Source of the DNA: Candidatus Poribacteria bacterium
GTDB taxonomy: Bacteria; Poribacteria; WGA-4E; PCPOR2b
Reading direction: 5' to 3'
NCBI GenBank assembly: GCA_022822785.1
Contig: JAJEAL010000031.1
Location: 1-32,171 of the forward strand
Length of the DNA: 32,171 nt
In this document: positions 19,398 to 32,171 of the stretch, one piece after another
Numbering within the stretch: the first letter of the stretch is position 1
Layout: each line of letters begins with the position of its first letter
The notes under the pieces: model-generated
Database searches by the model: none
Seen by the model: only the letters and a program-made list of their open reading frames with translations
Told to the model about the DNA's origin: nothing
Position numbers and translations under genes: made by a program

Positions 19398-20795
19398 ATG
19401 AGTCTGAAAATAGAGTTAAAAAATCTTGGCATCCTAAAACAGGCGGAGTTTTCGCTCGGAGATTTGACCCTTATCTGTGGAAAAAATAACACCGGCAAAA
19501 CCTATATTGCCTATGCACTGTATGCTTTCTTGAATGCTTGGCGCGGACTGACTGAGTTTGGGGTGAACAGTACTCAAATTCAACGCCTGCTTACAGATGG
19601 TGGTATCAAGATTGAGTTGGGGGGATATGCCGAAAAGGTGGATCAGCTGCTCGCAGAAGCATGTAAACGATATACCAATCAACTAGATAGCACAGTTTTT
19701 GCGACAACTGAAGGCCGATTTCATAACAGCGAGTTTCACGTCCAGATAGATGCGATTGACATACGCAATAAAGAACTCAAACGCGAACTGGGAATTGCTC
19801 AAGAGCGGTTTCTTAGGTATTCAAAGGAACGAGGTAGTGAAGAACTCACGGTGAGTTTGGTAGTGCAAAGAGATCAAGAGAGAGAAATAGATCCTTTTTT
19901 TACCGAAAGATCTGTTAACTTCATTATCGGCAATGCTATTTTTTCCGATTCTTTGCCTACTCCCTTTATTGCTTCAGCCGAGCGCACCGGACTCGCTATT
20001 TTCCGTAGGGAACTCAATTTTGCTCGGAATCGCTTACTTGAGGAAATGGGACGATCGAACCCTAAGATTGATCCTCAGGATTTGCTATTCAAAGCGTATC
20101 AAAGTTACCCTGTGCCGATAGAAGATAACGCGGATTTTATACGTCAACTTGAAGATATTGCAAAAAGAAACAGTTTTCTTGCTAAAGAACACCCTGAAGT
20201 ATTAGACGACTTCACTGACATTATCGGTGGCGAATACACTATAACACAAGATGACCAACTCTACTACACCCCCAAAGGGACGCGGCTTAAATTGACTATG
20301 GTTGAAAGTTCGAGTGCTGTGCGTTCACTTGTGGATCTCGGTTTTTATCTGCGCCATGTCGCCCAAAAGGGGCACCTACTTATGGTAGATGAGCCGGAAT
20401 TAAACCTGCATCCGGCAAACCAACGTCGCATTGCCAGACTTTTTGCACGTCTGGTGAATTTGGGTGTTAAGGTGTTTATCACCACCCACAGCGATTACAT
20501 CGTCAAAGAGTTGAATACCCTCATTATGCTCAATCACGATAAACCACACCTGAAAAGGATTGCCAAAGAGAACGGTTATCAGGAATCTGAGTTAATCCGT
20601 TCAGATCAGGTCAAGGTCTATATGACTCAAGAAGCACTAGTGCCATTAGAGGAGGGACAAAAGAGACGTAGAAGGGCCCACACGCTTGTGGAGGCTGATG
20701 TTGATCCAGTACTTGGCATTGAAGCCCGCAGCTTTGACGAGACGATTAATGAGATGAACAGTATTCAGGCAGACATTGTGTGGGGTGCGGAGTAA
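19398..20795 (+). CDS. ABC/AAA_15-like ATPase of a defence ATPase-nuclease pair
   Basis: A 465-residue P-loop ATPase of the SMC/OLD-like (AAA_15/AAA_21) class used as sensor or motor in many phage-defence systems. Walker A is GKNNTGKT (28-35). A long central insert (about 50-300) holds helical, coiled-coil-like sequence (RNKELKRELGIAQERFLRYS). A signature-like MVESSSAVRSL at 301-311 precedes Walker B LLMVDEPELNLHP (327-339) and the switch histidine H364 in FITTHSDYI. There is no TOPRIM domain at the C-terminus; a short acidic tail ends the protein. ATG 19398 has GGAGG about 8 nt upstream. The nuclease-like gene starts four nt after its stop and res follows, so the three form an operon. The exact defence family is not recognised. 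Confidence 0.85.
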   Translation: MSLKIELKNLGILKQAEFSLGDLTLICGKNNTGKTYIAYALYAFLNAWRGLTEFGVNSTQIQRLLTDGGIKIELGGYAEKVDQLLAEACKRYTNQLDSTVFATTEGRFHNSEFHVQIDAIDIRNKELKRELGIAQERFLRYSKERGSEELTVSLVVQRDQEREIDPFFTERSVNFIIGNAIFSDSLPTPFIASAERTGLAIFRRELNFARNRLLEEMGRSNPKIDPQDLLFKAYQSYPVPIEDNADFIRQLEDIAKRNSFLAKEHPEVLDDFTDIIGGEYTITQDDQLYYTPKGTRLKLTMVESSSAVRSLVDLGFYLRHVAQKGHLLMVDEPELNLHPANQRRIARLFARLVNLGVKVFITTHSDYIVKELNTLIMLNHDKPHLKRIAKENGYQESELIRSDQVKVYMTQEALVPLEEGQKRRRRAHTLVEADVDPVLGIEARSFDETINEMNSIQADIVWGAE

Positions 20796-20799
20796 GATT

Positions 20800-21363
20800 G
20801 TGAACGATATTGAAATATTGAAGGAAATGCTCGTCTGCGATGTCCAAGTTTCGTTACAACAGAAAGGAAGTCAACTGCCCTCTGTTAAACTAAAAGATAG
20901 ACAGGCGAACACGACTGTGGAGATAAAAGATTTGCCTCATGACTCAATTGTGATCAAAGCGGAAGATTTTAAGGACCCTCCTACTGTCTTTCAGGGGTCG
21001 AAGGACGAAGGCAGGCGGGCTGATTTTGTGATTGTATCCAATGACGGAATGAAAAAATGGATTGTTTGTATTGAAGTTAAGAGAGGTACAAGGATACGAC
21101 GAAACAGGGTTATAGCACAATTACGAGGTGCACGGTGTATTATGGATTACTGCAAATCTATAGGAAGAGAATTCTGGTCAGCAAGGGGATTTCTCAAAGG
21201 CTATGAATACCGATTTGTAGGTATAGCACGCCTTAACATTCAAATCCAACCAACACGTTCCGGTGCTTCTGGTGGTCCTTCCAGAACAAATTTGCATAAT
21301 CGGCCTGAGGCTTTTCTACGAATTTTAGGAAGGCAGAGCCTCTATTTCAACGAGTTGACCTAA
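20800..21363 (+). CDS. Predicted PD-(D/E)XK nuclease partner of the preceding ATPase
   Basis: A 187-residue protein that I do not recognise as a named family. It shows a PD-(D/E)XK-like core: GRRADFVIVSNDG (D75), then a strand WIVCIEVKRG giving E92-V-K94, then IAQLRGARCIMDYC, where Q107 fits the helix glutamine often found in such nucleases. An N-terminal helix and a C-terminal segment YEYRFVGIARLN complete it. GTG 20800 is chosen: it is four nt after the ATPase stop with GGAG at 20789-20792; a TTG at 20776 would overlap the ATPase end. The coupling implies that the ATPase and this nuclease act together, as in ATPase-nuclease defence pairs. It could instead be a nuclease-like fold without activity. 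The function is inference. Confidence 0.65.
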   Translation: MNDIEILKEMLVCDVQVSLQQKGSQLPSVKLKDRQANTTVEIKDLPHDSIVIKAEDFKDPPTVFQGSKDEGRRADFVIVSNDGMKKWIVCIEVKRGTRIRRNRVIAQLRGARCIMDYCKSIGREFWSARGFLKGYEYRFVGIARLNIQIQPTRSGASGGPSRTNLHNRPEAFLRILGRQSLYFNELT

Positions 21364-21375
21364 TGAGGTATCCTG

Positions 21376-24057
21376 ATGGCACTACATCCCAACTTCCCCG
21401 AATCGCCACACGAAATTATTGACCCCGCAGTGCGCTGGCTTCCAGACAACCAAACACTCGGAGACACCGATTACGGAAAACTGCTCCCCCCACTTGTCCA
21501 CAAGATTCGCGCGGAGGTCAAAGCGTGGCGCGATAGCGACTACAGCGGTGCTACCGAAACGAGCAAAGCGCTTCTCAATTGGTGGTTCAATACCCCTCAC
21601 CCGGTAGAGGAGTTAGATGGTACGATGACCGAGTTTCAGTACTACTTTGCCCAGCGCGAGGCACTGGAAACCATCATCTACCTGTACGATGTGTTCAAGG
21701 TGAGAGACAGATACGACCTGATGCGTTTCGACAGTTCGGGTGCTATTTCAACGGGGATGTTCGACGAAGATTGGCGGCGATTTGTGCTGAAAATGGCGAC
21801 AGGGACAGGCAAAACAAAGGTGATGAGCCTTGCGATCGCTTGGAGTTTCTTCCACAAACTGTACGAACCCGATTCCGAACTATCCCGCAACTTTCTGGTC
21901 ATTGCCCCCAATATCATCGTGTTGGATCGTATCTATCATGATTTTCAGGGGTTGCGTGTTTTCTTTGAGGACCCTGTGTTGCCCGATAACGGTTTTGAGG
22001 GGCGGGACTGGCGCGACGATTTTCAACTGACCCTACATCTACAGGACGAGGTACGCGTCGTCCACCCCACCGGCAACATCTTTCTGACCAATATCCACCG
22101 CGTCTACTCCGGGGATCAGCCGCCGCCGTCCCCCGACGACGACAACAGTATGGACTACTTCTTGGGGACGCGGCCAACGGGCGCAACCACCGATTCTAAG
22201 GTAGACTTGGGCGTAATTGTCCGTGACATTGACGAATTGATGATCTTGAACGATGAAGCACATCATATCCACGACAACAAGTTGGCATGGTTCAAATCGA
22301 TCGAGGACATTCACAATCGCCTGCTGCAGAAAGGGGGAGCGTTGGCGTTACAGGTCGACGTAACCGCCACGCCCAAGCACAACAATGGGGCGATTTTTGT
22401 GCAGACGGTGGCAGATTACCCGCTCGTGGAGGCGATTTCGCAAAATGTGGTCAAGCGTCCCGTACTTCCCGATGAAGAAAGCAGGGGCAAGCTGACCGAG
22501 CGACAAAGTGCGAAGTACACCGAAAGATACGCGGACTACCTCGATCTCGGCGTTATTGAGTGGCGTAAAGGGTCCGCAGAGCATGAAAAGGTAGGAAAGA
22601 AAGCCATTCTGTTTGTGATGACCGACCACACCCGGAACTGTGACGAGGTCGCGGAATATCTTGAAAATAGCTATCCCGATCTGAAGGAGGCTGTGCTGGT
22701 GATTCACACAAAGCAAAACGGCGAGATTTCCGAAGCTGCATCCGCTAAGAATCAAGAAGAATTAAAGAAACTGCGTAAACAGGCGAAGGAGATCGATTCG
22801 CCAGAGAGTCCGTACAAGGCGATTGTCTCAGTGTTGATGCTCAAGGAGGGGTGGGATGTCAAGAACGTTACCACCATTGTCGGACTGCGCCCCTATTCCG
22901 CCAAGAGCAACATTTTACCTGAGCAGACGCTAGGACGTGGGCTACGTCGGATGTACACCGAGGAAGTGCCGGAAGTTGTCAGTGTTGTCGGCACCGATGC
23001 CTTTATGGAATTTGTCGAATCAGTTCGAGTAGAGGGCGTGGAATTGGAACGCCGCCCGATGGGGCTAGATACCAAACCCAAAACGCCACTTGTGATCGAG
23101 GTGGACAAAGAAAACGGGGACAAGAACATCGACGCCCTAGATATCGAAATTCCAACCTTAACGCGGCGCGTTTATCGCGAATACAGGAATCTGGAAGGTC
23201 TGGACCTTACACAACTCGACTTTCCGCCTGTGACGTATCAGGGCTTTAGCAAAGAGGAGCAGCGGGAGATTGTTTTTCGGGATATGACAACCGGTGAGGA
23301 AACACACAGAACAGTGATGGATAGTACCGGCGTCGCAGATTATCGCAGCGCGGTCGGCTATTTTGCACAGACCATCATGAAAGAGTTAAAATTGGTCAGC
23401 GGTTATGATGTGCTGTACGGGAAGGTTAAAGAATTTATCCAAAACCAGTTGTTCGGTGAGCCGGTGGATTTGGATTCACCCAATACCGTCCGCAATCTGT
23501 CAGAACCCGCTGCCACAAAAACCGTGATTGAAACCCTCAGACGAGCCATAAACGACCTCACGATACAGGATAAAGGTGAAGCACAGATTAGCGAGATTAT
23601 CAGGTTACGGGATATACGGCCCTTTGTGGTCAAGGAGCAATCCTATTTGACCCCCGAAAAATCTGTGTTCAACAGAATCACCGGCGATAACCAATTGGAG
23701 CGGGATTTTGCCGCATTTCTGGAGGACAGTCCTGATGTAGTTTCCTTCGGAAAAAATTATTTTGCGACGGGTTTCAAGTTGGATTACGTCAATGATGATG
23801 GCGGCATCTCCAACTACCATCCCGATTTCTTCGTAAAATTGGCGGACGGACGGATAATTGTCGCCGAGACCAAAGGACGGAAGGATGTGGATGTAGATCC
23901 CAAGATGCACCGACTGGCGCAATGGTGTAAGGATGTCAACATCAACCAATCCGATGTCGTCTACGACTTTGTTTATGTTGATGAGGATAATTTTCGGGAG
24001 TATACACCGAGAACATTTCAGCAACTACTTGAAGGATTCCGGGAATACAAAACCTGA
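21376..24057 (+). CDS. Type III-like restriction enzyme, Res subunit (SF2 helicase plus PD-(D/E)XK nuclease)
   Basis: An 893-residue restriction subunit that would translocate on and cut DNA lacking the partner methylation. The helicase core has Walker A ATGTGKT (141-147), FLVIAPNIIVLDRIYHDF, the DEAH-like box NDEAHH (292-297) and VDVTATP (327-333). The second RecA domain has LMLKEGWDVKNVTTIVGLRP and QTLGRGLRRMY. The C-terminal endonuclease motif is YHPDFFVKLADG...AETKGRKD, with D817, E831 and K833. The N-terminal block (LLNWWFNTPH, FQYYFAQREALETIIYL, LMRFDSSGAI) resembles what I recall as the BPTD_3080-type restriction endonuclease group. ATG 21376 has GAGGT upstream and a 12-nt gap from the nuclease gene. 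Its methyltransferase is 2.3 kb downstream, beyond three unrelated genes, and comes after res rather than before it, which is unusual for type III loci. Confidence 0.92.
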   Translation: MALHPNFPESPHEIIDPAVRWLPDNQTLGDTDYGKLLPPLVHKIRAEVKAWRDSDYSGATETSKALLNWWFNTPHPVEELDGTMTEFQYYFAQREALETIIYLYDVFKVRDRYDLMRFDSSGAISTGMFDEDWRRFVLKMATGTGKTKVMSLAIAWSFFHKLYEPDSELSRNFLVIAPNIIVLDRIYHDFQGLRVFFEDPVLPDNGFEGRDWRDDFQLTLHLQDEVRVVHPTGNIFLTNIHRVYSGDQPPPSPDDDNSMDYFLGTRPTGATTDSKVDLGVIVRDIDELMILNDEAHHIHDNKLAWFKSIEDIHNRLLQKGGALALQVDVTATPKHNNGAIFVQTVADYPLVEAISQNVVKRPVLPDEESRGKLTERQSAKYTERYADYLDLGVIEWRKGSAEHEKVGKKAILFVMTDHTRNCDEVAEYLENSYPDLKEAVLVIHTKQNGEISEAASAKNQEELKKLRKQAKEIDSPESPYKAIVSVLMLKEGWDVKNVTTIVGLRPYSAKSNILPEQTLGRGLRRMYTEEVPEVVSVVGTDAFMEFVESVRVEGVELERRPMGLDTKPKTPLVIEVDKENGDKNIDALDIEIPTLTRRVYREYRNLEGLDLTQLDFPPVTYQGFSKEEQREIVFRDMTTGEETHRTVMDSTGVADYRSAVGYFAQTIMKELKLVSGYDVLYGKVKEFIQNQLFGEPVDLDSPNTVRNLSEPAATKTVIETLRRAINDLTIQDKGEAQISEIIRLRDIRPFVVKEQSYLTPEKSVFNRITGDNQLERDFAAFLEDSPDVVSFGKNYFATGFKLDYVNDDGGISNYHPDFFVKLADGRIIVAETKGRKDVDVDPKMHRLAQWCKDVNINQSDVVYDFVYVDEDNFREYTPRTFQQLLEGFREYKT

Positions 24058-24198: not shown

Positions 24199-25290
24199 AT
24201 GACAGCTTACGCTTTTTGGAACAACAAGGGGGGCGTTGGCAAAAGTTTTTTAAGTTTTGTTGCAGCAACTGAGTATGCCCGCACGTATCCAGACACTGAT
24301 GTCTACGTTATAGATCTATGTCCGCAGGCAAATATTTCTGAGATGTTGCTCTTGAATGCCGAAATGTTAATTGATTACGACGACATGTCGCTCATCAGCT
24401 ATGATGTGATTCACAGAAATTATGATGTGATCCACAAATTGATAGAAAAGAAACCCCGTTGTACAGTCGCAGGCTATCTTGAAGCACGACTAAATTCTCC
24501 TTTTCGACCTATTGAGGATGTGTCTCCCTATGTGTGTCGGCCTCGGGACTTCAACACAAAACTTCCAGTAAATTTACAGTTGGTTTGCGGTGATTATCTT
24601 CTTGAAATTCTATCAGAAGCAATTCGCCAAACTTCGCAACTCGCGATTCCAGTGGATGCGTGGAAACAGGTGATCAATTGGATCAAAGATTTAACAATGA
24701 CGTTGCGTCAGCGGAGCGGAAACAGAGATGCACTTTTTATTCTTGACTGTAATCCGAGTTTTGCGATCTACACCCAGTTGGCTCTCGCGGCTGCAGACAA
24801 TCTTGTTGTGCCTTTTACGCCTGATGATAGTTCGCGCCGAGCTGTGGAGAATGTCGTTGCGCTGCTATATGGCAATGGTATGGGGGACCCGAAGATAGAA
24901 ACGTATGCAAAAATCAATTTTGCCAATAGGGCGAGAGAAGAAGGTTTGGATATTCCGAAACTTCACACCTTCGTTAACAATCGCATAACACTCTATCGTG
25001 GCAAAGCAAGCAAGGCTTTTGAAGCGGTGAGCGAGTCTATTAAGGAAACCGTGGATGCTCTTCACAAAAAGCATCGCCAAATCTACGCAACCCCGGAAGA
25101 GTTGCCGAGCAAAAGGTTCATAGACGTACCTGACTATCATAGCGCATGTGTTGTTATGACCGTTAAAGGAATACCCTTAGATAGCCTTCAAGCAGGACCA
25201 AATAGGCTTGGCGATAAACAGATTCAACTTAATTCCGAACCATTAGAACGGTATCGAAAAGCACTCACCAAATTTGTAAATTGTCTTTGA
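24199..25290 (+). CDS. ParA/MinD-like ATPase in the restriction-modification locus
   Basis: A 363-residue ATPase with the deviant Walker A KGGVGKS (10-16) of the ParA/MinD class, which form ATP-dependent dimers on DNA or membranes. Switch I is VYVIDLCPQAN, where the usual D-x-D-PQ-N has Cys in place of the second Asp. The LFILDCNPSFAIYTQLALAAADNLVVPFTPDDSSRRAVENV stretch (about 182-222) is the typical ParA Walker B and following region. No ParB gene or parS site accompanies it, so chromosome or plasmid partition is unlikely; placing or gating a complex is more plausible. A 21-bp tandem repeat gives YDVIH twice around residues 68-80. A strong AGGAGG box precedes ATG 24199. The membrane-protein gene follows after 103 nt. 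The role is inference. Confidence 0.85.
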   Translation: MTAYAFWNNKGGVGKSFLSFVAATEYARTYPDTDVYVIDLCPQANISEMLLLNAEMLIDYDDMSLISYDVIHRNYDVIHKLIEKKPRCTVAGYLEARLNSPFRPIEDVSPYVCRPRDFNTKLPVNLQLVCGDYLLEILSEAIRQTSQLAIPVDAWKQVINWIKDLTMTLRQRSGNRDALFILDCNPSFAIYTQLALAAADNLVVPFTPDDSSRRAVENVVALLYGNGMGDPKIETYAKINFANRAREEGLDIPKLHTFVNNRITLYRGKASKAFEAVSESIKETVDALHKKHRQIYATPEELPSKRFIDVPDYHSACVVMTVKGIPLDSLQAGPNRLGDKQIQLNSEPLERYRKALTKFVNCL

Positions 25291-25393: not shown

Positions 25394-25858
25394 ATGAAAA
25401 ATATCAAATACATCGTGCCAGTGTCAATCGGTTTAGGCATCTTGGCATTAATAATACTTGTGGTCATAGCAGCCACACGAAATTTGAGTGGTTTGGAGAG
25501 TGTACTTTTGCAAATTATTCTCTTAGCAATAGGCAGTAGTATTTCGTTCTTTATTGGTCAAAAGTCGGCTCGTGAGGCAGCGAGCGAAATCATCAAGCCA
25601 CATGCACGGTCTGCATTCCGTCGCCTTATCTCCCTTTATAACGGTCTCTCTCGGGCAGCAAAGGCAATCGAATCATCACAGAGTTCAAAATCCGATGAAG
25701 ACTATCAAGTGCTACTCGCCCGTCTTAGAGAAATCGTTGCCCATCAACTAATAACAGCAGACAATGCGCTAGAAGATTGGAACGACATTGTTCCGGAAGA
25801 TGTGAAAGAGTTAAAGCAGAAACTTCAATCTGACAATACAACGGAGGAAAGACAGTGA
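25394..25858 (+). CDS. Two-helix membrane protein with cytoplasmic coiled coil
   Basis: A 154-residue protein of no recognised family. Residues 6-27 (IVPVSIGLGILALIILVVIAA) and about 35-54 (VLLQIILLAIGSSISFFIG) are two membrane helices separated by a short loop. The remainder (about 55-154) is charged and helical: KSAREAASEIIKPHARSAFRRL and LLARLREIVAHQLITADNAL, likely a coiled coil in the cytoplasm. The last four bases (GTGA) overlap the start of the next gene, so the two are translationally coupled. The 103-nt gap before it holds an AAGGAGG at 25350-25356 and a small hairpin AGGAA-ATAA-TTCCT (25362-25375), but the direct ribosome site for ATG 25394 is weak. Position beside the ParA-like ATPase suggests a membrane anchor for it, which is inference. 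Confidence 0.7.
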   Translation: MKNIKYIVPVSIGLGILALIILVVIAATRNLSGLESVLLQIILLAIGSSISFFIGQKSAREAASEIIKPHARSAFRRLISLYNGLSRAAKAIESSQSSKSDEDYQVLLARLREIVAHQLITADNALEDWNDIVPEDVKELKQKLQSDNTTEERQ

Positions 25859-26310
25859 GCACACCGATTCGCGGAAAAGTCGCCTATGTGCTTAACAACG
25901 GCGACATCGTAATAAACGTAGGAGCAGCCCATGGCGTACATCGAGGTATGTACTTTGATGTGCTAGATGACCGTAATTTAGAGATAAGAGACCCCGATAC
26001 GCAGGAAGTAATAGGTTCCCTTGAGATTTCAAAAATTAAAGTAGAAGTTATTGATATTCAAGAAAAAATATCGGTAGCAACCCCACACCTATCGGTAGAA
26101 AGGAGGACTGAGGATAGCTACAGAGTTTCAATACCCCTTGGTCCATTCGCTCGATCTCTTATGCCCCCCGGCTGGGTAACAGAGGAGGCAATATCCCGGA
26201 GTAAGAAGGATAACAACGTGGGGATCGGGGATTCTGTCGTTCAATTTATTGGAGAGATTTATCCTGATAATATTGACAGGGAACAAATAACAGTAGATAT
26301 AGAGGAGTAA
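25855..26310 (+). CDS. Small beta-rich protein, FlgT-C-like repeat domain
   Basis: A 151-residue protein of unknown function. The N-terminal half reads GKVAYVLNNGDIVINVGAAHGVHRGMYFDVLDD, then DPDTQEVIGSLEISKIKVEVIDIQEKISVAT. This G-x-V...I-N-x-G...G-V-x-x-G-M-x-F-x-V layout resembles the small barrel at the C-terminus of FlgT and related surface or ligand-binding proteins. The C-terminal part (about 85-151) is less distinct. There is no signal peptide or membrane helix. GTG 25855 overlaps the upstream stop by four bases, with GGAGG about 8 nt before it, so it is co-translated with the membrane protein. It may form a soluble adaptor for that protein. I cannot assign a function. Confidence 0.65.
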   Translation: MSTPIRGKVAYVLNNGDIVINVGAAHGVHRGMYFDVLDDRNLEIRDPDTQEVIGSLEISKIKVEVIDIQEKISVATPHLSVERRTEDSYRVSIPLGPFARSLMPPGWVTEEAISRSKKDNNVGIGDSVVQFIGEIYPDNIDREQITVDIEE

Positions 26311-26342: not shown

Positions 26343-28595
26343 ATGCCACGACTCACAGAGCAAGAACAACAAGAAATCATCCGCTTTCTTGAGGCGGACA
26401 AGCCGCTGCCCGAAAAATACCGCTTTCTACTATTTGAAGACAAACGTGAGGTCGAGTTAGTCTGGAACGGCAAAACCAACGAAGTCTGCAACATCGTCCT
26501 GCCCTTCCAATCAATTGAACTAGTGGATGAGCCCCGCGCCGAAAAGCCGGACGAAACCACCTTGCAACTGGATCTGTTTGATGAGCGGGGGCGCCAGCGC
26601 AAGGGCTGGACCAACAAACTAATCTGGGGCGATAACAAGTTGATTCTTTCATCGCTCAAGAATGGTCCCCTGCGCGAGGAAATCGAAGCACAAGGGGGCT
26701 TGAAGCTAATCTACATTGACCCACCCTTTGACGTGGGCGCGGATTTTTCGATGAATATCGACATTGGTGAAGACACCTTTACCAAGAAACCGAACATCCT
26801 CGAAGAGATTGCCTACCGTGACACCTGGGGCAAGGGAGCGGATTCCTTTATTGCGATGATCTACGAGCGGTTGGTTCTGATGAGGGATCTACTGGCAGAG
26901 GAGGGGAGTATTTACGTGCATTGCGATTGGAGAATGGTTGGCTATCTAAGAATAGTTATTGATGAAGTCTTCGGATCTGACCATTTCCAAAACATAATTA
27001 CTTGGCGTAGAGGACCGCAAAAATCGCACGGGTTAGGTTATGGGCATAATGCAGACTACATAATTTATGCAACCAAAACGGATCGAGTTGTATGGAATAT
27101 ACAAACCGGTGAATTATCAGAGGAATACTTGGATTCTTTCAAAGAAGATGAGCACGGGAAGTACGTTACAACTCCTCTGCATAGTGGGCGTCCACCGAAA
27201 AATGTACCTGAATGGCGTGGAGTCAAACCTCCACTAGGCAGAGGGTGGGCATACGCGATTGAGACATTGGAAAAATTAGATAAAGAGGGCAAAGTTGAGT
27301 GGAGCAAGAATAGAGTTCCACGACTAAAGCGATATTTGAATGAGATAAAGGGTGCTGCGGTTCAAGAAATTTGGACAGACATTAAACCGCTATTAGCAAA
27401 ATCGTCATCGCATGTCGGTTACCCCACCCAAAAACCGGAACCCCTACTGGAACGCATTATCAAAGCATCCTCTAATGAGGGGGATCTCGTTGCTGATTTC
27501 TTCTGTGGATCCGGCACCACCGCCGCCGTTGCTGAAAAACTGGGGCGCAAGTGGATTTGCACGGACCTGGGCAAGTTTGCCCTCCACACCACCCGAAAGC
27601 GGCTGATTGGAGTCCAACGTCAACTCAAGGCGGATGGAGAGGACTACCGCGCCTTTGAAATCCTTAATCTTGGCAAATATGAGCGTCAACACTACATCGG
27701 TCTCAATCCAAACCTGCGCGAAGCCGAACAGGAGCAGCAGTTAGAAGAAAAGGAGAAGGCGTTTGTCAATCTCATCTTGCGTGCCTATTCCGCCGAAATA
27801 ACGGACGGTTTTACCGCCTTTCAAGGGTTGAAAGCGGGGCGGCTTGTAGCGGTGGGTCCCGTCAACCTGCCGGTGACACGCCTCTTTATTGAGGAGATTA
27901 TCTTAGAATGCCGCAAACATCGGATCAGTCGTGTGGACATTCTCGGCTTTGAGTTTGAGATGGGGTTGTTCCCCAACCTGTTAGATGAAGCGCGGAGCAA
28001 AGGCATTGACCTCGCGCCGAAATACATCCCCGCCGAGGTGTTCGACAAACGGGCGGTGGATCGAGAGCAGGTCGTATTTCACGATGTGGCGTTTATTGAG
28101 GTCAAGCCGATCGTGACACCCGGCAAGAAGAGCACACCTCCTACCGTGGCGGTGGAGTTGACCGATTTTTCCGTGTTCTATTCACAGGATGCTAACACCG
28201 ACGCCGATCAGCAGCTCAAAAACAGGAGTAGCTCGGTTAGGGTCGAACAGGGGCAGATTATAAAAGTGAGCAAAGATGCAAACGGGGTTGTTGACCGTGA
28301 AGTGTTGACGAAACAGTGGACGGACTGGATCGACTATTGGTCGGTAGATTTTGACTTCGAGAGCAAACGCGAAATTATCCGCGTGCAAGATCCGGGGACG
28401 GGTGAGTGGGAAGAACAGTGGACCGGCGACTACATCTTTGAAAACGAGTGGCAAAGCTTCCGCACCAAGAAGGACCGCTCGTTGGAATTGACTAGCGTCG
28501 CCCATGAATGCAACCCCGGACGACGCAAGCTCGCCGTCAAGGTGGTGGACATTTTCGGGAATGATACAATGACGATTGTGGAGGTAACAGTGTGA
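26343..28595 (+). CDS. Type III-like adenine-specific DNA methyltransferase (Mod)
   Basis: A 750-residue beta-class N6-adenine methyltransferase that would both modify and, with Res, recognise the target. Catalytic motif IV is LIYIDPPFD (DPPF at 126-129) and the AdoMet-binding motif I is DFFCGSGTTAA (385-392). The target-recognition region lies between them (about 200-355), and GYPTQKP precedes motif I. The C-terminal third (about 430-750) carries extra domains that usually contact Res (FSVFYSQDANTD, DWIDYWSVDFDF). The ATG is 16 nt after a GGGAG box. The stop overlaps the following ATPase start by GTGA. The recognition region has visibly lower G+C (for example 21/60 on 27061-27120 against 37/60 on 27541-27600), as if exchanged. 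The last 129 nt recur at about 31809-31937 with 93% identity. Confidence 0.92.
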   Translation: MPRLTEQEQQEIIRFLEADKPLPEKYRFLLFEDKREVELVWNGKTNEVCNIVLPFQSIELVDEPRAEKPDETTLQLDLFDERGRQRKGWTNKLIWGDNKLILSSLKNGPLREEIEAQGGLKLIYIDPPFDVGADFSMNIDIGEDTFTKKPNILEEIAYRDTWGKGADSFIAMIYERLVLMRDLLAEEGSIYVHCDWRMVGYLRIVIDEVFGSDHFQNIITWRRGPQKSHGLGYGHNADYIIYATKTDRVVWNIQTGELSEEYLDSFKEDEHGKYVTTPLHSGRPPKNVPEWRGVKPPLGRGWAYAIETLEKLDKEGKVEWSKNRVPRLKRYLNEIKGAAVQEIWTDIKPLLAKSSSHVGYPTQKPEPLLERIIKASSNEGDLVADFFCGSGTTAAVAEKLGRKWICTDLGKFALHTTRKRLIGVQRQLKADGEDYRAFEILNLGKYERQHYIGLNPNLREAEQEQQLEEKEKAFVNLILRAYSAEITDGFTAFQGLKAGRLVAVGPVNLPVTRLFIEEIILECRKHRISRVDILGFEFEMGLFPNLLDEARSKGIDLAPKYIPAEVFDKRAVDREQVVFHDVAFIEVKPIVTPGKKSTPPTVAVELTDFSVFYSQDANTDADQQLKNRSSSVRVEQGQIIKVSKDANGVVDREVLTKQWTDWIDYWSVDFDFESKREIIRVQDPGTGEWEEQWTGDYIFENEWQSFRTKKDRSLELTSVAHECNPGRRKLAVKVVDIFGNDTMTIVEVTV

Positions 28596-30130
28596 AAATA
28601 GATTCAATTCATTTACAGAATTTCAAGCGGTTTACCAACTTGAAAATTCAAAATATCCCTGCGATGGCGAAACTGGTGGTTCTGCTTGGTCCCAATGGTT
28701 GTGGAAAATCATCGTTGTTTGATGCCTTACACTACAAATCTTATGAATATAGGCGGTTAGGACGCAATGAGGATCCTGATTATTATTTCAAAATACCTAC
28801 TCAGGAACGGCGGTCAAATCTAATAGATATTGAATTTCACAACCCATCGCAATCTGATATGGGAAAAGCGATTTATGTGCGAACTGCCTACCGTAATGAC
28901 CCGGTGATAAATGTAGAGTCAATACAAAGGATGCAATCGGCTATCCGAGAAACAAGATTCAATAGCCTAATTGAAAACGATGCTGCAGCTACCGGCAATT
29001 ATCAAAGACTTGCCTCTAACGCACTAGAGCGTGCATTTAGAAGGGAGGATCGGGCAAAAAGTTTGGGAGATTTTCAAGATGAGACCCTTGGGGAGATTCA
29101 AGCTGCCATGAATCGGCTTTTTCCTGATCTAATGCTCAATAGTTTGGGGAACCCCCTTAGTGACAGAAGCTTTACTTTCGACAAGGGAACAAGTAAAAGT
29201 TTTCTTTATAAGAATCTTTCGGGTGGAGAAAAATCTGCTTTTGATTTACTCTTTGATATTTTTGTCAAAAGGGTAGAATATGATGATACTGTTTTTTGTA
29301 TAGACGAGCCGGAAGCACACATGAATCCTAGATTACAGGGGCATCTTCTTGAGGAACTTTTTCGGTTGATGAACGATAAATCGCAATTGTGGATTGCGAC
29401 CCATGCTATTGGTATGATGCGACAGGCACTGCAGCTATACGAACAATACGGAGAGGAGATAGTATTTCTTGATTTTAGCGATGGAAACTTTGACAGCCCG
29501 GAGATTATAGAGCCTACCAAGCCCAATCGTAGATTCTGGGAACAAACACATGAGATTGCTTTAGACGATTTAGCTGCGCTCGTCGTACCGAACCAGATTG
29601 TTATTTGTGAGGGAAAACAAGGGGATAAAGGTCTCGACGCAGAATGCTACAATCATATCTTTTCCGAAGAATTTCCCAATACAAAATTCATTTCGGGAGG
29701 GGGTAAGAGAGATCTACGAAATTACATCTCAGTTATTGATGCGGTTGCGAAAGGTGTAACTGTCTTTGGCCTCAGAGATCGTGATCAAGCCTCATGTGGG
29801 GAAGTAGCCCAGTGGAAACAAGAGGGAATAAAAGTTTTGGAGCAAGGACAACTCGAAGACTATCTGCTAGCAGACGATGTATTACGCGCACTATGTCAGC
29901 ATAATGAACTAGAACCTTACGAGGAAAAAGCAGACGAATTGATAGAATTACGAGACAGTATTTCAAATATCAAAGACGCTGCTAATCAAATTCGTCGAAA
30001 GGTAATTGATTGGGGAGTGCACGGGGCGGGCGAGGCTCCTGAAGGATTTCTGCGCGATACAGTCGCTCCACGGATCAAACCCGGAATGCCTACTTATGTC
30101 GAATTGAAACAGATAATTTTTGGGTCGTGA
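28592..30130 (+). CDS. ATPase fused to DUF4435/TOPRIM-like nuclease domain (fused PARIS-like, OLD-like)
   Basis: A 512-residue protein with an ABC/AAA_15-type ATPase and a C-terminal TOPRIM-like domain. Walker A is GPNGCGKSS (33-41), the signature is LSGGEKSAFDLLF (209-221), Walker B is VFCIDEPEAHMNP (234-246) and the switch histidine is H271 (IATHAIG). The second domain starts at IVICEGKQGDKGLDAECY, with the TOPRIM glutamate E340, and has the D-x-D pair D396/D398 in LRDRDQ. That order and spacing fit DUF4435, the AriB-type nuclease domain, while the front half fits AriA. PARIS systems are known in fused form and respond to phage anti-restriction proteins. The start GTG 28592 overlaps the mod stop by four bases, so it is made with Mod. 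OLD-family or another ATPase-TOPRIM fusion is the alternative; subfamily assignment needs alignment. Confidence 0.8.
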   Translation: MKIDSIHLQNFKRFTNLKIQNIPAMAKLVVLLGPNGCGKSSLFDALHYKSYEYRRLGRNEDPDYYFKIPTQERRSNLIDIEFHNPSQSDMGKAIYVRTAYRNDPVINVESIQRMQSAIRETRFNSLIENDAAATGNYQRLASNALERAFRREDRAKSLGDFQDETLGEIQAAMNRLFPDLMLNSLGNPLSDRSFTFDKGTSKSFLYKNLSGGEKSAFDLLFDIFVKRVEYDDTVFCIDEPEAHMNPRLQGHLLEELFRLMNDKSQLWIATHAIGMMRQALQLYEQYGEEIVFLDFSDGNFDSPEIIEPTKPNRRFWEQTHEIALDDLAALVVPNQIVICEGKQGDKGLDAECYNHIFSEEFPNTKFISGGGKRDLRNYISVIDAVAKGVTVFGLRDRDQASCGEVAQWKQEGIKVLEQGQLEDYLLADDVLRALCQHNELEPYEEKADELIELRDSISNIKDAANQIRRKVIDWGVHGAGEAPEGFLRDTVAPRIKPGMPTYVELKQIIFGS

Positions 30131-30160: not shown

Positions 30161-30526
30161 ATGCCGGAAGATATTCAGGTATCCATGTTTGAAGTTGTGG
30201 GCGGTCCCTTGTGCGTCGCTTCCAACGATGGGCAAAAGGTTTATGAACGCCTTGCCGCTGCCCTTAAAGCCGACCGGCATGTTACACTCTCATTTCGCAA
30301 GGTCACGACGTTGACCGCAGCATTCCTGAATGCTGCAGTTGGTCAGTTGTATGGGACCTTTGGTAAAGAAAAAATTCGTTCACTATTGAAGGTGAAAGAC
30401 GTGGAGCCAGTAGATCTTGCACTGTTGAAGCGCGTTGTTGATAATGCCAAACTATACTTCAAAGATCCGCAGAGATTTAACCAAGTGATTCGGGAAACGC
30501 TGGAGGATGAAGATAGTGCGCCATAA
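30161..30526 (+). CDS. STAS-like domain protein (DUF4325)
   Basis: A 121-residue single-domain protein. The segment RHVTLSFRKVTTLTAAFLNAAVGQLYGTFGKEKI is the core of the STAS-like DUF4325 family, whose members resemble anti-sigma-factor antagonists and sit in signalling or defence clusters. The STAS phosphorylated serine position appears as T or A here (VTTLTAAFL), so phosphorylation control is unlikely. The C-terminal helix (DLALLKRVVDNAKLYFKDPQRFNQVI) is typical. ATG 30161 has GGGGAGAG about 6 nt upstream. It starts 30 nt after the ATPase-DUF4435 gene, in the same direction, and is probably on the same transcript. No partner kinase is seen. Confidence 0.72.
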   Translation: MPEDIQVSMFEVVGGPLCVASNDGQKVYERLAAALKADRHVTLSFRKVTTLTAAFLNAAVGQLYGTFGKEKIRSLLKVKDVEPVDLALLKRVVDNAKLYFKDPQRFNQVIRETLEDEDSAP

Positions 30527-31757: not shown

Positions 31758-31805
31758 ACAACGGATGCTGTGATTAGTCAATAAGTAACAAAGTTTTAGC
31801 CTCAA

Positions 31806-31933
31806 AAAAGGACCGCTCGTTGGAATTGACCAGCGTCGCGTATGAATGCAGCTCCGGACGACGCAAACTCGCCGTCAAGGTGGTGGACATTTTCGGGAAT
31901 GATACGATGACGATCGTAGAGGTAACAGTGTGA
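31806..31933 (+). pseudogene. Diverged fragment of a second mod 3' end
   Basis: Residual frame KDRSLELTSVAYECSSGRR..., then VDIFGNDTMTIVEVTV and a stop at 31931-31933. From 31809 the sequence aligns without gaps to the end of mod at offset 3338: 28471-28599 matches 31809-31937 at 120 of 129 positions. Of nine differences, six are synonymous and three change residues (H to Y, N to S, P to S). There is no start or catalytic region. It is what is left of another mod gene. Confidence 0.85.
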
Positions 31934-31983
31934 AAATCGCTTCAATTTGTTTGAGGGATCATGTCCGCCTTGTCAAGCCAGCG
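31930..31983 (+). pseudogene. Vestigial start of an ATPase gene behind the mod fragment
   Basis: GTG 31930 overlaps the mod-fragment stop by GTGA, exactly as in the intact locus, and reads MKIASICLRDHVRLVKPA then stop. The intact ATPase begins MKIDSIHLQNFKRFTN, so K-I-x-S-I-x-L is kept before similarity fades after about 31955. It shows that the fragment once had the same mod-ATPase junction. Confidence 0.6.
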
Positions 31984-32000
31984 TGAGCGCTTGACAAGGC
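31967..32000. repeat. 11-bp stem hairpin after the mod remnant
   Basis: GCCTTGTCAAG (31967-31977) pairs perfectly with CTTGACAAGGC (31990-32000) around a 12-nt loop. There is no T-run after it, so it is only a possible terminator or the end of a rearranged segment. Confidence 0.45.
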
Positions 32001-32171
32001 CCCTTGGATTAAAACCGTTGTCCAAAGCCTAGCAGAATGATTGATGTTTTGCTTGCAATATGTTATTCCGATATGTTAAAATAGTAATCACATATTGACC
32101 GAAGAGTTATTAGGACGTGTTAACATTTTGCTCTTGCTGTTGCCAAAAACGCTCAAGTTACTGAAAAAGCT
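32001..32171. other. A+T-rich tail of the window, no gene supported
   Basis: No coding frame is supported. TTGCAA (32053-32058) and TTAAAA (32076-32081), 17 nt apart, could be a weak plus-strand promoter for a gene beyond the window. Nothing else is seen. Confidence 0.3.

What the first reader, a model, noticed from the sequence alone, without database searches (positions are those of the whole stretch)
28592..30130. Fused PARIS-like ATPase-DUF4435 gene translationally coupled to a type III mod gene
The protein combines an AAA_15/ABC ATPase (Walker A 33-41, signature 209-215, Walker B 234-241, H271) with a TOPRIM-like domain (E340, D396, D398) in the AriA+AriB order. Its GTG start overlaps the mod stop by four bases. 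PARIS detects phage anti-restriction proteins, so an arrangement in which Mod and a PARIS-like effector are made from one coupled message would be a guard built into a restriction locus. The motifs and the overlap are seen; the guard role is inferred.
Basis: partly seen in the sequence, partly recalled or inferred. Interest (0 to 1): 0.8.

Follow-up and report, generated by a model that had tools for sequence, protein, structure and literature searches.

The report
Fused PARIS-like protein in restriction loci
A sponge-bacterium restriction-modification locus makes, straight after its DNA-methylating enzyme, a one-piece relative of the PARIS anti-phage suicide system, and relatives occupy the same kind of spot in other sorts of restriction locus, which suggests a built-in back-up defence.

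Summary
ORF 28592-30130 is an OLD/ABC-type ATPase fused to a TOPRIM domain. Its GTG start overlaps the stop of a type III mod gene by 4 nt, behind a GGAGG in the last mod codons. By profile the TOPRIM half is DUF4435/AriB-like, not OLD-like; by fold the two are close (AriB Z 9.1, OLD Z 8.0). The window protein itself misses the Pfam DUF4435 cut-off; six relatives reach it.
Linkage to type III mod is not constant, yet linkage to restriction-modification (R-M) goes beyond it. Of 22 family genes with upstream sequence in the phylum (Candidatus Poribacteria), 14 abut a methyltransferase gene: 9 type III mod, 5 Eco57I-type. One copy in another phylum lies between hsdM and hsdS. Of 33 other DUF4435 loci in the same genomes, 0 abut one, though some two-gene PARIS pairs lie close to R-M genes. 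The slot after mod turns over: two PARIS-like clades (41% identical) share it while mod and res stay about 80% identical; other mods carry other genes or none; scars remain.
Likely a back-up abortive effector co-made with its R-M enzyme; guarding is inferred. PrrC, Ronin and PARIS in BREX are precedents: a new variant of a known kind.

The parts
28592..30130 (+). fused PARIS-like protein, 512 aa: ATPase about residues 1-320, TOPRIM/DUF4435-like about 326-512
26343..28595 (+). type III DNA methyltransferase (mod), 750 aa
   Evidence: N6_N4_Mtase 6.2e-41; PADLOC MTase_III 1.8e-104
28580..28584 (+). GGAGG, Shine-Dalgarno-like, inside the last mod codons, 7 nt before the GTG start
   Evidence: read from sequence; a GAGG stands there in 24 of the 28 mod ends, also in some without a following gene, so it is not specific to the coupling
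28592..28595 (+). GTGA: start of the fused gene overlapping the mod stop
21376..24057 (+). res-like restriction gene, 893 aa (ResIII helicase; weak TnsA-like/RE_endonuc C-terminus below cut-off)
   Evidence: upstream of mod in most mod-linked relatives
24199..25290 (+). ParA-like ATPase between res and mod
   Evidence: AAA_31 1.3e-11; present in part of the relatives
25394..25858 (+). small protein between res and mod
   Evidence: present in several relatives; weak VTT_dom below cut-off
25855..26310 (+). small protein between res and mod
   Evidence: present in several relatives; weak FlgT_C below cut-off
30161..30526 (+). STAS-like DUF4325 protein, frequent next gene in the cassette
   Evidence: PF14213 1e-15
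31805..31947 (+). 143-bp relic: mod 3' end plus the first codons of a second fused gene
   Evidence: 91.6% identical to 28467-28609
19398..21363 (+). PD-T4-4 / PDC-M47 A and B pair (19398-20795, 20776-21363) beside the cassette
   Evidence: PADLOC 2.1e-203 and 5.4e-55; present in many relatives of the locus

Best explanation
The gene encodes a single-chain PARIS-like effector (ABC-type ATPase sensor/switch plus AriB-like TOPRIM nuclease), translated from the same message as Mod, in a slot at the 3' end of an R-M methyltransferase gene where accessory effectors are exchanged. Shown: domains, gene overlap, repeated R-M embedding, slot turnover, purifying selection. Inferred: it is held inactive while the R-M enzyme works and fires when a phage inhibits restriction (an anti-restriction protein such as a DNA mimic, sensed by the ATPase or through Mod). 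The TOPRIM domain would then cut RNA, perhaps tRNA as AriB does, and stop the cell before phage release.
For: Domain identity. Coupling: 4-nt overlap with mod in 8 of 9 mod-linked copies and one in-frame Mod fusion. R-M embedding: 14 of 22 phylum copies abut a methyltransferase (the five Eco57I-type genes by Pfam), against 0 of 33 other DUF4435 loci (Fisher p 7e-8, loci not independent). In the phylum of a SAR202 genome: hsdM - 14 nt - fused gene - 4-nt overlap - hsdS, with an hsdR-like ORF about 2.3 kb on. Slot turnover: fused protein 41% identical between clades against about 80% for mod and res; scars of its start after mod in L122 and L128. Precedent: PARIS senses Ocr and halts growth (PMC9122126, passages); PrrC in EcoprrI and Ronin sense R-M inhibition (PMC12409349, PMC12707154, passages); ATPase + DUF4435 genes sit between pglX and pglZ in StySA BREX (PMC9009780, passages), and PARIS-like modules are called back-up effectors in BREX (PMC12839542, section 35 part 1).
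Against: No trigger, toxicity or nuclease activity was tested. Of 16 loci from other sources 14 showed no R-M gene close by, so the protein can probably work alone. Rousset et al. [quoted passage not shown] Many mods of the same kind lack the gene, so Mod does not need it. Some two-gene PARIS pairs in the same genomes also lie near R-M genes (L182, L183, L185, L188), so nearness alone is not special. The ATPase (about 320 aa) is shorter than AriA (386-465 aa in 14 Poribacterial pairs), so an Ocr-type sensor surface may be absent.
Confidence: 0.5

Rival explanations
1. It is an autonomous fused PARIS: the ATPase itself senses a phage protein and Mod has no part beyond shared expression. Sitting after a methyltransferase only ensures steady co-expression and joint transfer.
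For: Copies with no R-M gene seen close by in Alphaproteobacteria, SAR202, a Zymomonas plasmid and viral contigs. E. coli PARIS works without EcoKI (PMC9122126, passages).
Against: Coupling recurs with three methyltransferase types, once inside an hsd operon, and one copy is fused in frame to Mod; shared expression alone does not predict a site at the methyltransferase gene.
Confidence: 0.27
2. It is a passenger: R-M and PARIS-like genes pile up in defence islands, and the 3' end of mod is a recombination hot spot that accepts any small defence cassette.
For: The slot also accepts HATPase-like and DUF4325 genes or stays empty; scars and relics; two-gene PARIS pairs L182 and L183 lie 0.1-0.3 kb behind a ResIII gene, and L185 lies between a helicase gene and a DUF1156/methyltransferase-like gene.
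Against: 0 of 33 other DUF4435 loci abut a methyltransferase in the same genomes; 4-nt overlaps with mod (8), Eco57I-type genes (2) and hsdS (1).
Confidence: 0.15
3. It is an OLD-type DNA nuclease that serves as an extra restriction nuclease on unmodified DNA rather than an abortive RNase.
For: OLD C-terminal domains fit the TOPRIM model almost as well as AriB (Z 8.0 against 9.1 and 7.8 for two AriB chains), and OLD is the top Foldseek hit, E 0.0097. Whether fused AriAB is a separate OLD class is open (PMC10568477, passages).
Against: No PF20469 match; DUF4435 cut-off passed by six relatives; profile match to AriB 96.4%, E 1.1e-9 (no like comparison with OLD was run).
Confidence: 0.08

Closest known systems
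PARIS (AriA + AriB, including AriAB single-gene fusions; Rousset et al. 2022)
   Same: ABC ATPase followed by DUF4435 TOPRIM nuclease; PADLOC AriAB is the best profile; fusions already described (PMC9122126, passages)
   Different: Compact chain (512-612 aa for the Poribacterial copies read in full, against AriA 386-465 plus AriB 262-320); often directly after an R-M methyltransferase; trigger and target unknown
ATPase + DUF4435 genes inside BREX (StySA: STM4493, STM4494 between pglX and pglZ; PMC9009780, passages)
   Same: ATPase + DUF4435 placed in a methylation-based defence locus next to the methyltransferase
   Different: Two genes; BREX rather than type III, IIG or I R-M; no overlap with the methyltransferase gene mentioned in the passages read
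PrrC in EcoprrI, and Ronin (ronA) (PMC12409349, PMC12707154, passages)
   Same: Effector encoded within an R-M or R-M-like locus, fires on anti-restriction proteins
   Different: Other effectors (that PrrC carries a HEPN domain is recalled); here sensing is not shown
OLD class 1 / GajA
   Same: Single-chain ABC ATPase + TOPRIM; similar folds
   Different: No PF20469 match; relatives pass the DUF4435 cut-off

Membership tests
PARIS (AriAB fusion) | AAA_15/AAA_21 ATPase over the cut-off | tested here: met
   61.3 and 66.5 bits against 32.1 and 27
PARIS (AriAB fusion) | DUF4435 (PF14491) over the cut-off in this very protein | tested here: not met
   no hit at E<=10; own genome 0 matches
PARIS (AriAB fusion) | C-terminal domain homologous to AriB/DUF4435 at family level | tested here: met
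   six family genes over 27 bits, one of them 74% identical to the window protein; one of the six, L053, again 29.7 bits; two mod-linked copies below cut-off, L047 19.1 and L045 14.6 bits; hhalign to AriB proteins 96.4%, E 1.1e-9; 8ux9_A Z 9.1, rmsd 4.4, 162 aligned
PARIS (AriAB fusion) | TOPRIM catalytic acids (Glu, DxD) | tested here: met
   E340, D396, D398 invariant in 8 of 8 and 12 of 12 C-terminal sequences
PARIS (AriAB fusion) | activation by Ocr or another phage anti-restriction protein | not testable with these tools
   needs an experiment
PARIS (AriAB fusion) | tRNA cleavage by the TOPRIM domain | not testable with these tools
   needs an experiment
OLD family (class 1/2) | OLD-like TOPRIM (PF20469) | tested here: not met
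   no hit for the window C-terminus at E<=10; 3 matches at E<=1e-5 in 84 genomes, none a family member
OLD family (class 1/2) | OLD TOPRIM fold | tested here: inconclusive
   6nk8_B Z 8.0, rmsd 5.0, 156 aligned, between the two AriB entries (Z 9.1 and 7.8)
R-M guard of the PrrC kind (function) | gene inside an R-M locus | tested here: met
   mod overlap; hsdM - fused gene - hsdS in L197
R-M guard of the PrrC kind (function) | latent complex with the R-M enzyme, released by an R-M inhibitor | not testable with these tools
   one natural Mod fusion is suggestive only
MADS (Mad3 ATPase) | NCBIfam MAD3 score over the cut-off | tested here: not met
   26.2 bits against 420

The most novel reading that the evidence does not exclude
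A family of single-chain PARIS-like proteins has become an exchangeable guard subunit of R-M enzymes. It moves between type III, Eco57I-type and type I loci, is made together with the modification subunit, binds the methyltransferase, and reads its inhibition by phage, so that the modification subunit itself is the sensor.
Probability: 0.25. Interest if true: 0.75.

Novelty: new variant of a known kind. Interest (0 to 1): 0.52.

Why it matters
Two-gene PARIS can act without an R-M system, whereas PrrC is bolted to one. A PARIS-like protein repeatedly wired into R-M loci of different types offers a direct test of how independent sensors become dedicated guards. It bears on the open question whether fused AriAB proteins form their own OLD class (PMC10568477, passages), and it marks the 3' end of methyltransferase genes as a place to look for other back-up effectors (HATPase-like, DUF4325).

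Tried and rejected
Direct Pfam support for DUF4435 or OLD-TOPRIM in the window C-terminus: none at E<=10. MADS: rejected on score. The whole-chain fold search was filled by ATPase domains (PtuA, retron, SMC/Rad50) and barely tested the TOPRIM part, so that part was modelled alone. Foldseek alone put an OLD C-terminus first, E 0.0097, with no hit at E<=0.001; AriB came first only in the VIA re-alignment.

A simple motif test for methyltransferases gave false positives: a ~560-aa gene in L192 and 13 further loci with two-gene PARIS is conserved but has no Pfam match (scanned once, L192). It also misses genes: it missed L046, L055 and L059, which Pfam found. L197's upstream ORF, flagged by the motif, looked like a spurious GC-rich frame until Pfam showed it to be hsdM. 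Flanks of L062 and of most loci from other sources were judged by motif and eye only.

Constant linkage to mod: rejected. Two-gene PARIS as a clean negative control: only partly. L182 and L183 (and L184 by likeness, not scanned) follow a ResIII gene by 0.1-0.3 kb; L185 follows a helicase gene and precedes a DUF1156/methyltransferase-like gene by 275 nt; L188 has an N6_N4 methylase about 1 kb before AriA. For the two-gene pairs the gene before AriA was not tabulated systematically. Rows dropped before the slot count: L115, L123, L124, L126 (mod end broken or off the contig) and L129 (33% identical mod).

The primary paper on ABC-ATPase conflict systems and the PARIS (2024) and Ronin (2025) papers are not held and are cited only through others. 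The eight paper searches listed none that names this arrangement in title or abstract start; they cover open-licence papers only. 'Chloroflexota' for SAR202 and for the group of L197 is recalled, not from a call.
Full report
What is there. The ORF at 28592-30130 (+) is 512 aa and begins with GTG. The mod gene 26343-28595 ends in TGA, so four bases (GTGA) are shared; GGAGG at 28580-28584, inside the last mod codons, could serve as a ribosome site 7 nt before the GTG. The N-terminal 300 residues match AAA_21 and AAA_15. The best PADLOC profile is AriAB, 3e-37, and it is the only strong one for the C-terminal part (1.7e-8).

Which TOPRIM. The window C-terminus hits neither DUF4435 nor OLD-TOPRIM in Pfam. 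Across 84 genomes of the phylum, PF14491 passes its cut-off in six members of this family, one of them (G036:C63) 74% identical to the window protein; PF20469 gives 3 hits at E<=1e-5, none in the family. Two other mod-linked copies reach DUF4435 only below cut-off (L047 E 0.0012, L045 E 0.028). A profile of the family C-terminus (35 rows, 34 kept) matches a profile of 15 AriB-type proteins from the same phylum, 14 of which have a gene of over 250 aa directly before them (96.4%, E 1.1e-9, 104 columns). The Glu of the xEG motif, the acidic pair and the LExYL segment fall in register. The N-terminus matches the AriA partners (97.8%, E 1.2e-12, 90 columns); swapped comparisons give under 1%. No such comparison with OLD was run. 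The C-terminal model (pLDDT 86) fits 8ux9_A best (PARIS complex; chain of 306 residues, taken to be AriB since chain B is AriA): Z 9.1, rmsd 4.4, 162 residues. An OLD C-terminus follows (Z 8.0), then a second AriA-AriB entry (Z 7.8). I therefore call it PARIS-like: profile and fold point to AriB, but the window protein itself misses a defining Pfam cut-off and no function was tested.

Where it occurs. In that phylum 20 of 84 genomes have the family at E<=1e-30: 25 places, which I count as 24 genes (one is hit in two pieces; the two G050 fragments are taken as separate). Elsewhere it is rare: 4 of 385, 1 of 369 and 3 of 400 genomes in the class of G084 (Leisingera), class of G088 (OMG group) and phylum of G089 (SAR202), each count including the seed, with at most 3 candidates scored per genome. 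One plasmid of 72,556 has it and 4 viral contigs; one phage, in two records, has a distant match, 22% identity.

Neighbours in the phylum. Of the 24 genes, two have no usable upstream sequence (L052, L064). Of the other 22, 14 abut a methyltransferase gene on the same strand. Nine follow a mod homologous to the window's: 8 with the 4-nt overlap, and L043 fused in frame across a short deletion, giving a 1225-aa Mod-ATPase-TOPRIM reading frame in one MAG. Five follow an Eco57I-type gene of 1226-1252 aa at -4 (two), +5 (two) or +11 nt (Pfam). Six more have an R-M family gene within about 3 kb: L046, L055, L057, L059, L060, L063 (L055 barely over the cut-off, L057 an HSDR_N protein). L050 and L062 showed none by motif and eye; the sequence before L050 resembles a decayed mod end (by eye).

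Neighbours elsewhere. Of 16 loci from other groups, a plasmid and viral contigs (14, 2), L197 (phylum of G089) reads hsdM - 14 nt - fused gene - 4-nt overlap - hsdS, with an hsdR-like ORF about 2.3 kb further on. L010, a broken copy, follows an AlwI-type nuclease by 360 nt and a D12 methylase before that. The other 14 showed no R-M gene close by; they were judged mostly by motif and eye. The Zymomonas plasmid has a type I R gene about 8 kb away.

Control. One search listed 42 DUF4435 places; 36 are not of this family. I read all 36 (17, all); 33 had a readable ORF and upstream sequence. None abuts a methyltransferase; most are AriA-AriB pairs. 14 of 22 against 0 of 33 gives Fisher p 7e-8 (an earlier 0 of 17 gave 2.5e-5). 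The loci share ancestry, so p overstates independence. Against my reading: L182 and L183 lie 0.1-0.3 kb behind a ResIII gene, L185 lies between a helicase and a DUF1156/methyltransferase-like gene, L188 has a methylase about 1 kb before AriA, and L191, a more distant fused ATPase-DUF4435, starts 137 nt after an Eco57I gene. PARIS near R-M is thus not rare in these genomes; what sets this family apart is abutment to the modification gene.

A slot that turns over. Searching mod itself and reading what follows gave 28 mod 3' ends: fused gene clade 1 in five (window, L042-L045), clade 2 in four (L047-L049, L061), a ~290-aa protein in four (L111, L116, L117, L125; HATPase_c below cut-off in L111, no match in L116), DUF4325 directly in six (L108, L109, L118-L120, L122), res in two (L114, L121), nothing related in six (L107, L110, L112, L113, L127, L128), and the window relic. 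Two ends without the gene keep a scar of its first codons: L122 (21 of 21 nt) and L128 (27 of 29 nt). In the window a second mod end plus the first codons lies at 31805-31947 (91.6%), followed by a stretch repeated at nine other places in the genome. Between the two clades the fused protein is 41% identical (74% and 81% within), while mod is 80% (81-83% within) and res 80% (up to 93% between clades) (best single alignments, some partial): the gene was apparently swapped while its neighbours stayed. dN/dS in clade 1 is 0.11-0.20 over 10 pairs (NG86).

How it probably works. Shown: domains, overlap, repeated embedding, turnover, constraint. Inferred: a latent back-up effector. Known PARIS is triggered by Ocr and halts growth (PMC9122126, passages); AriB is a tRNase whose E26 is needed (PMC12409363, passages). 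PrrC sits in EcoprrI and fires when Stp inhibits it, and Ronin is proposed to sense anti-restriction proteins through modification subunits (PMC12409349, PMC12707154, passages). ATPase + DUF4435 genes occur between pglX and pglZ in StySA (PMC9009780, passages), and BREX-borne PARIS-like modules are proposed as back-up effectors (PMC12839542, section 35 part 1). The idea of a guard built into a restriction locus is therefore not new. What I did not see in the searches named under Tried and rejected is a fused PARIS-like family coupled to type III, Eco57I-type and type I modification genes with a swappable slot.

Verdict. Identity is well supported. A back-up effector tied to the R-M locus is about one in two; the strict form with Mod as sensor, one in four.

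Noticed in passing
L111 3202-4074 (-), L116, L117, L125: In four loci the slot after mod holds a ~290-aa protein (HATPase_c below the Pfam cut-off in L111) with the same 4-nt overlap, followed by DUF4325: another candidate back-up effector pair.
   Followed up: partly
window 30161-30526 and relatives: DUF4325 (STAS-like) is a frequent next gene of the cassette, in several loci followed by a PIN-domain gene (L108 9861-10412) and the PD-T4-4/PDC-M47 pair.
   Followed up: partly
L192 6207-7889 (-) and 13 other loci: A conserved ~560-aa gene without a Pfam match (scanned in L192 only) lies just upstream of one kind of two-gene PARIS pair in Poribacteria.
   Followed up: partly
window 31952-32100: The stretch after the relic is repeated, in whole or part, at nine other places in the genome, perhaps the end of a mobile element.
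   Followed up: no
L123, L125, L127, L128 (G032, G077): Mod is interrupted near codon 592-600. In G032 codons 1-592 end at a contig end, and two other contigs begin with another reading frame joined to codons 600-750: an insertion in mod, a copied C-terminus or an assembly break.
   Followed up: no
L182, L183: Two-gene PARIS pairs lie 0.1-0.3 kb downstream of a ResIII-type gene.
   Followed up: partly
window 24199-25290: A ParA-like ATPase gene sits inside the res-mod cassette in a good part of the Poribacterial loci; its role is unclear.
   Followed up: no
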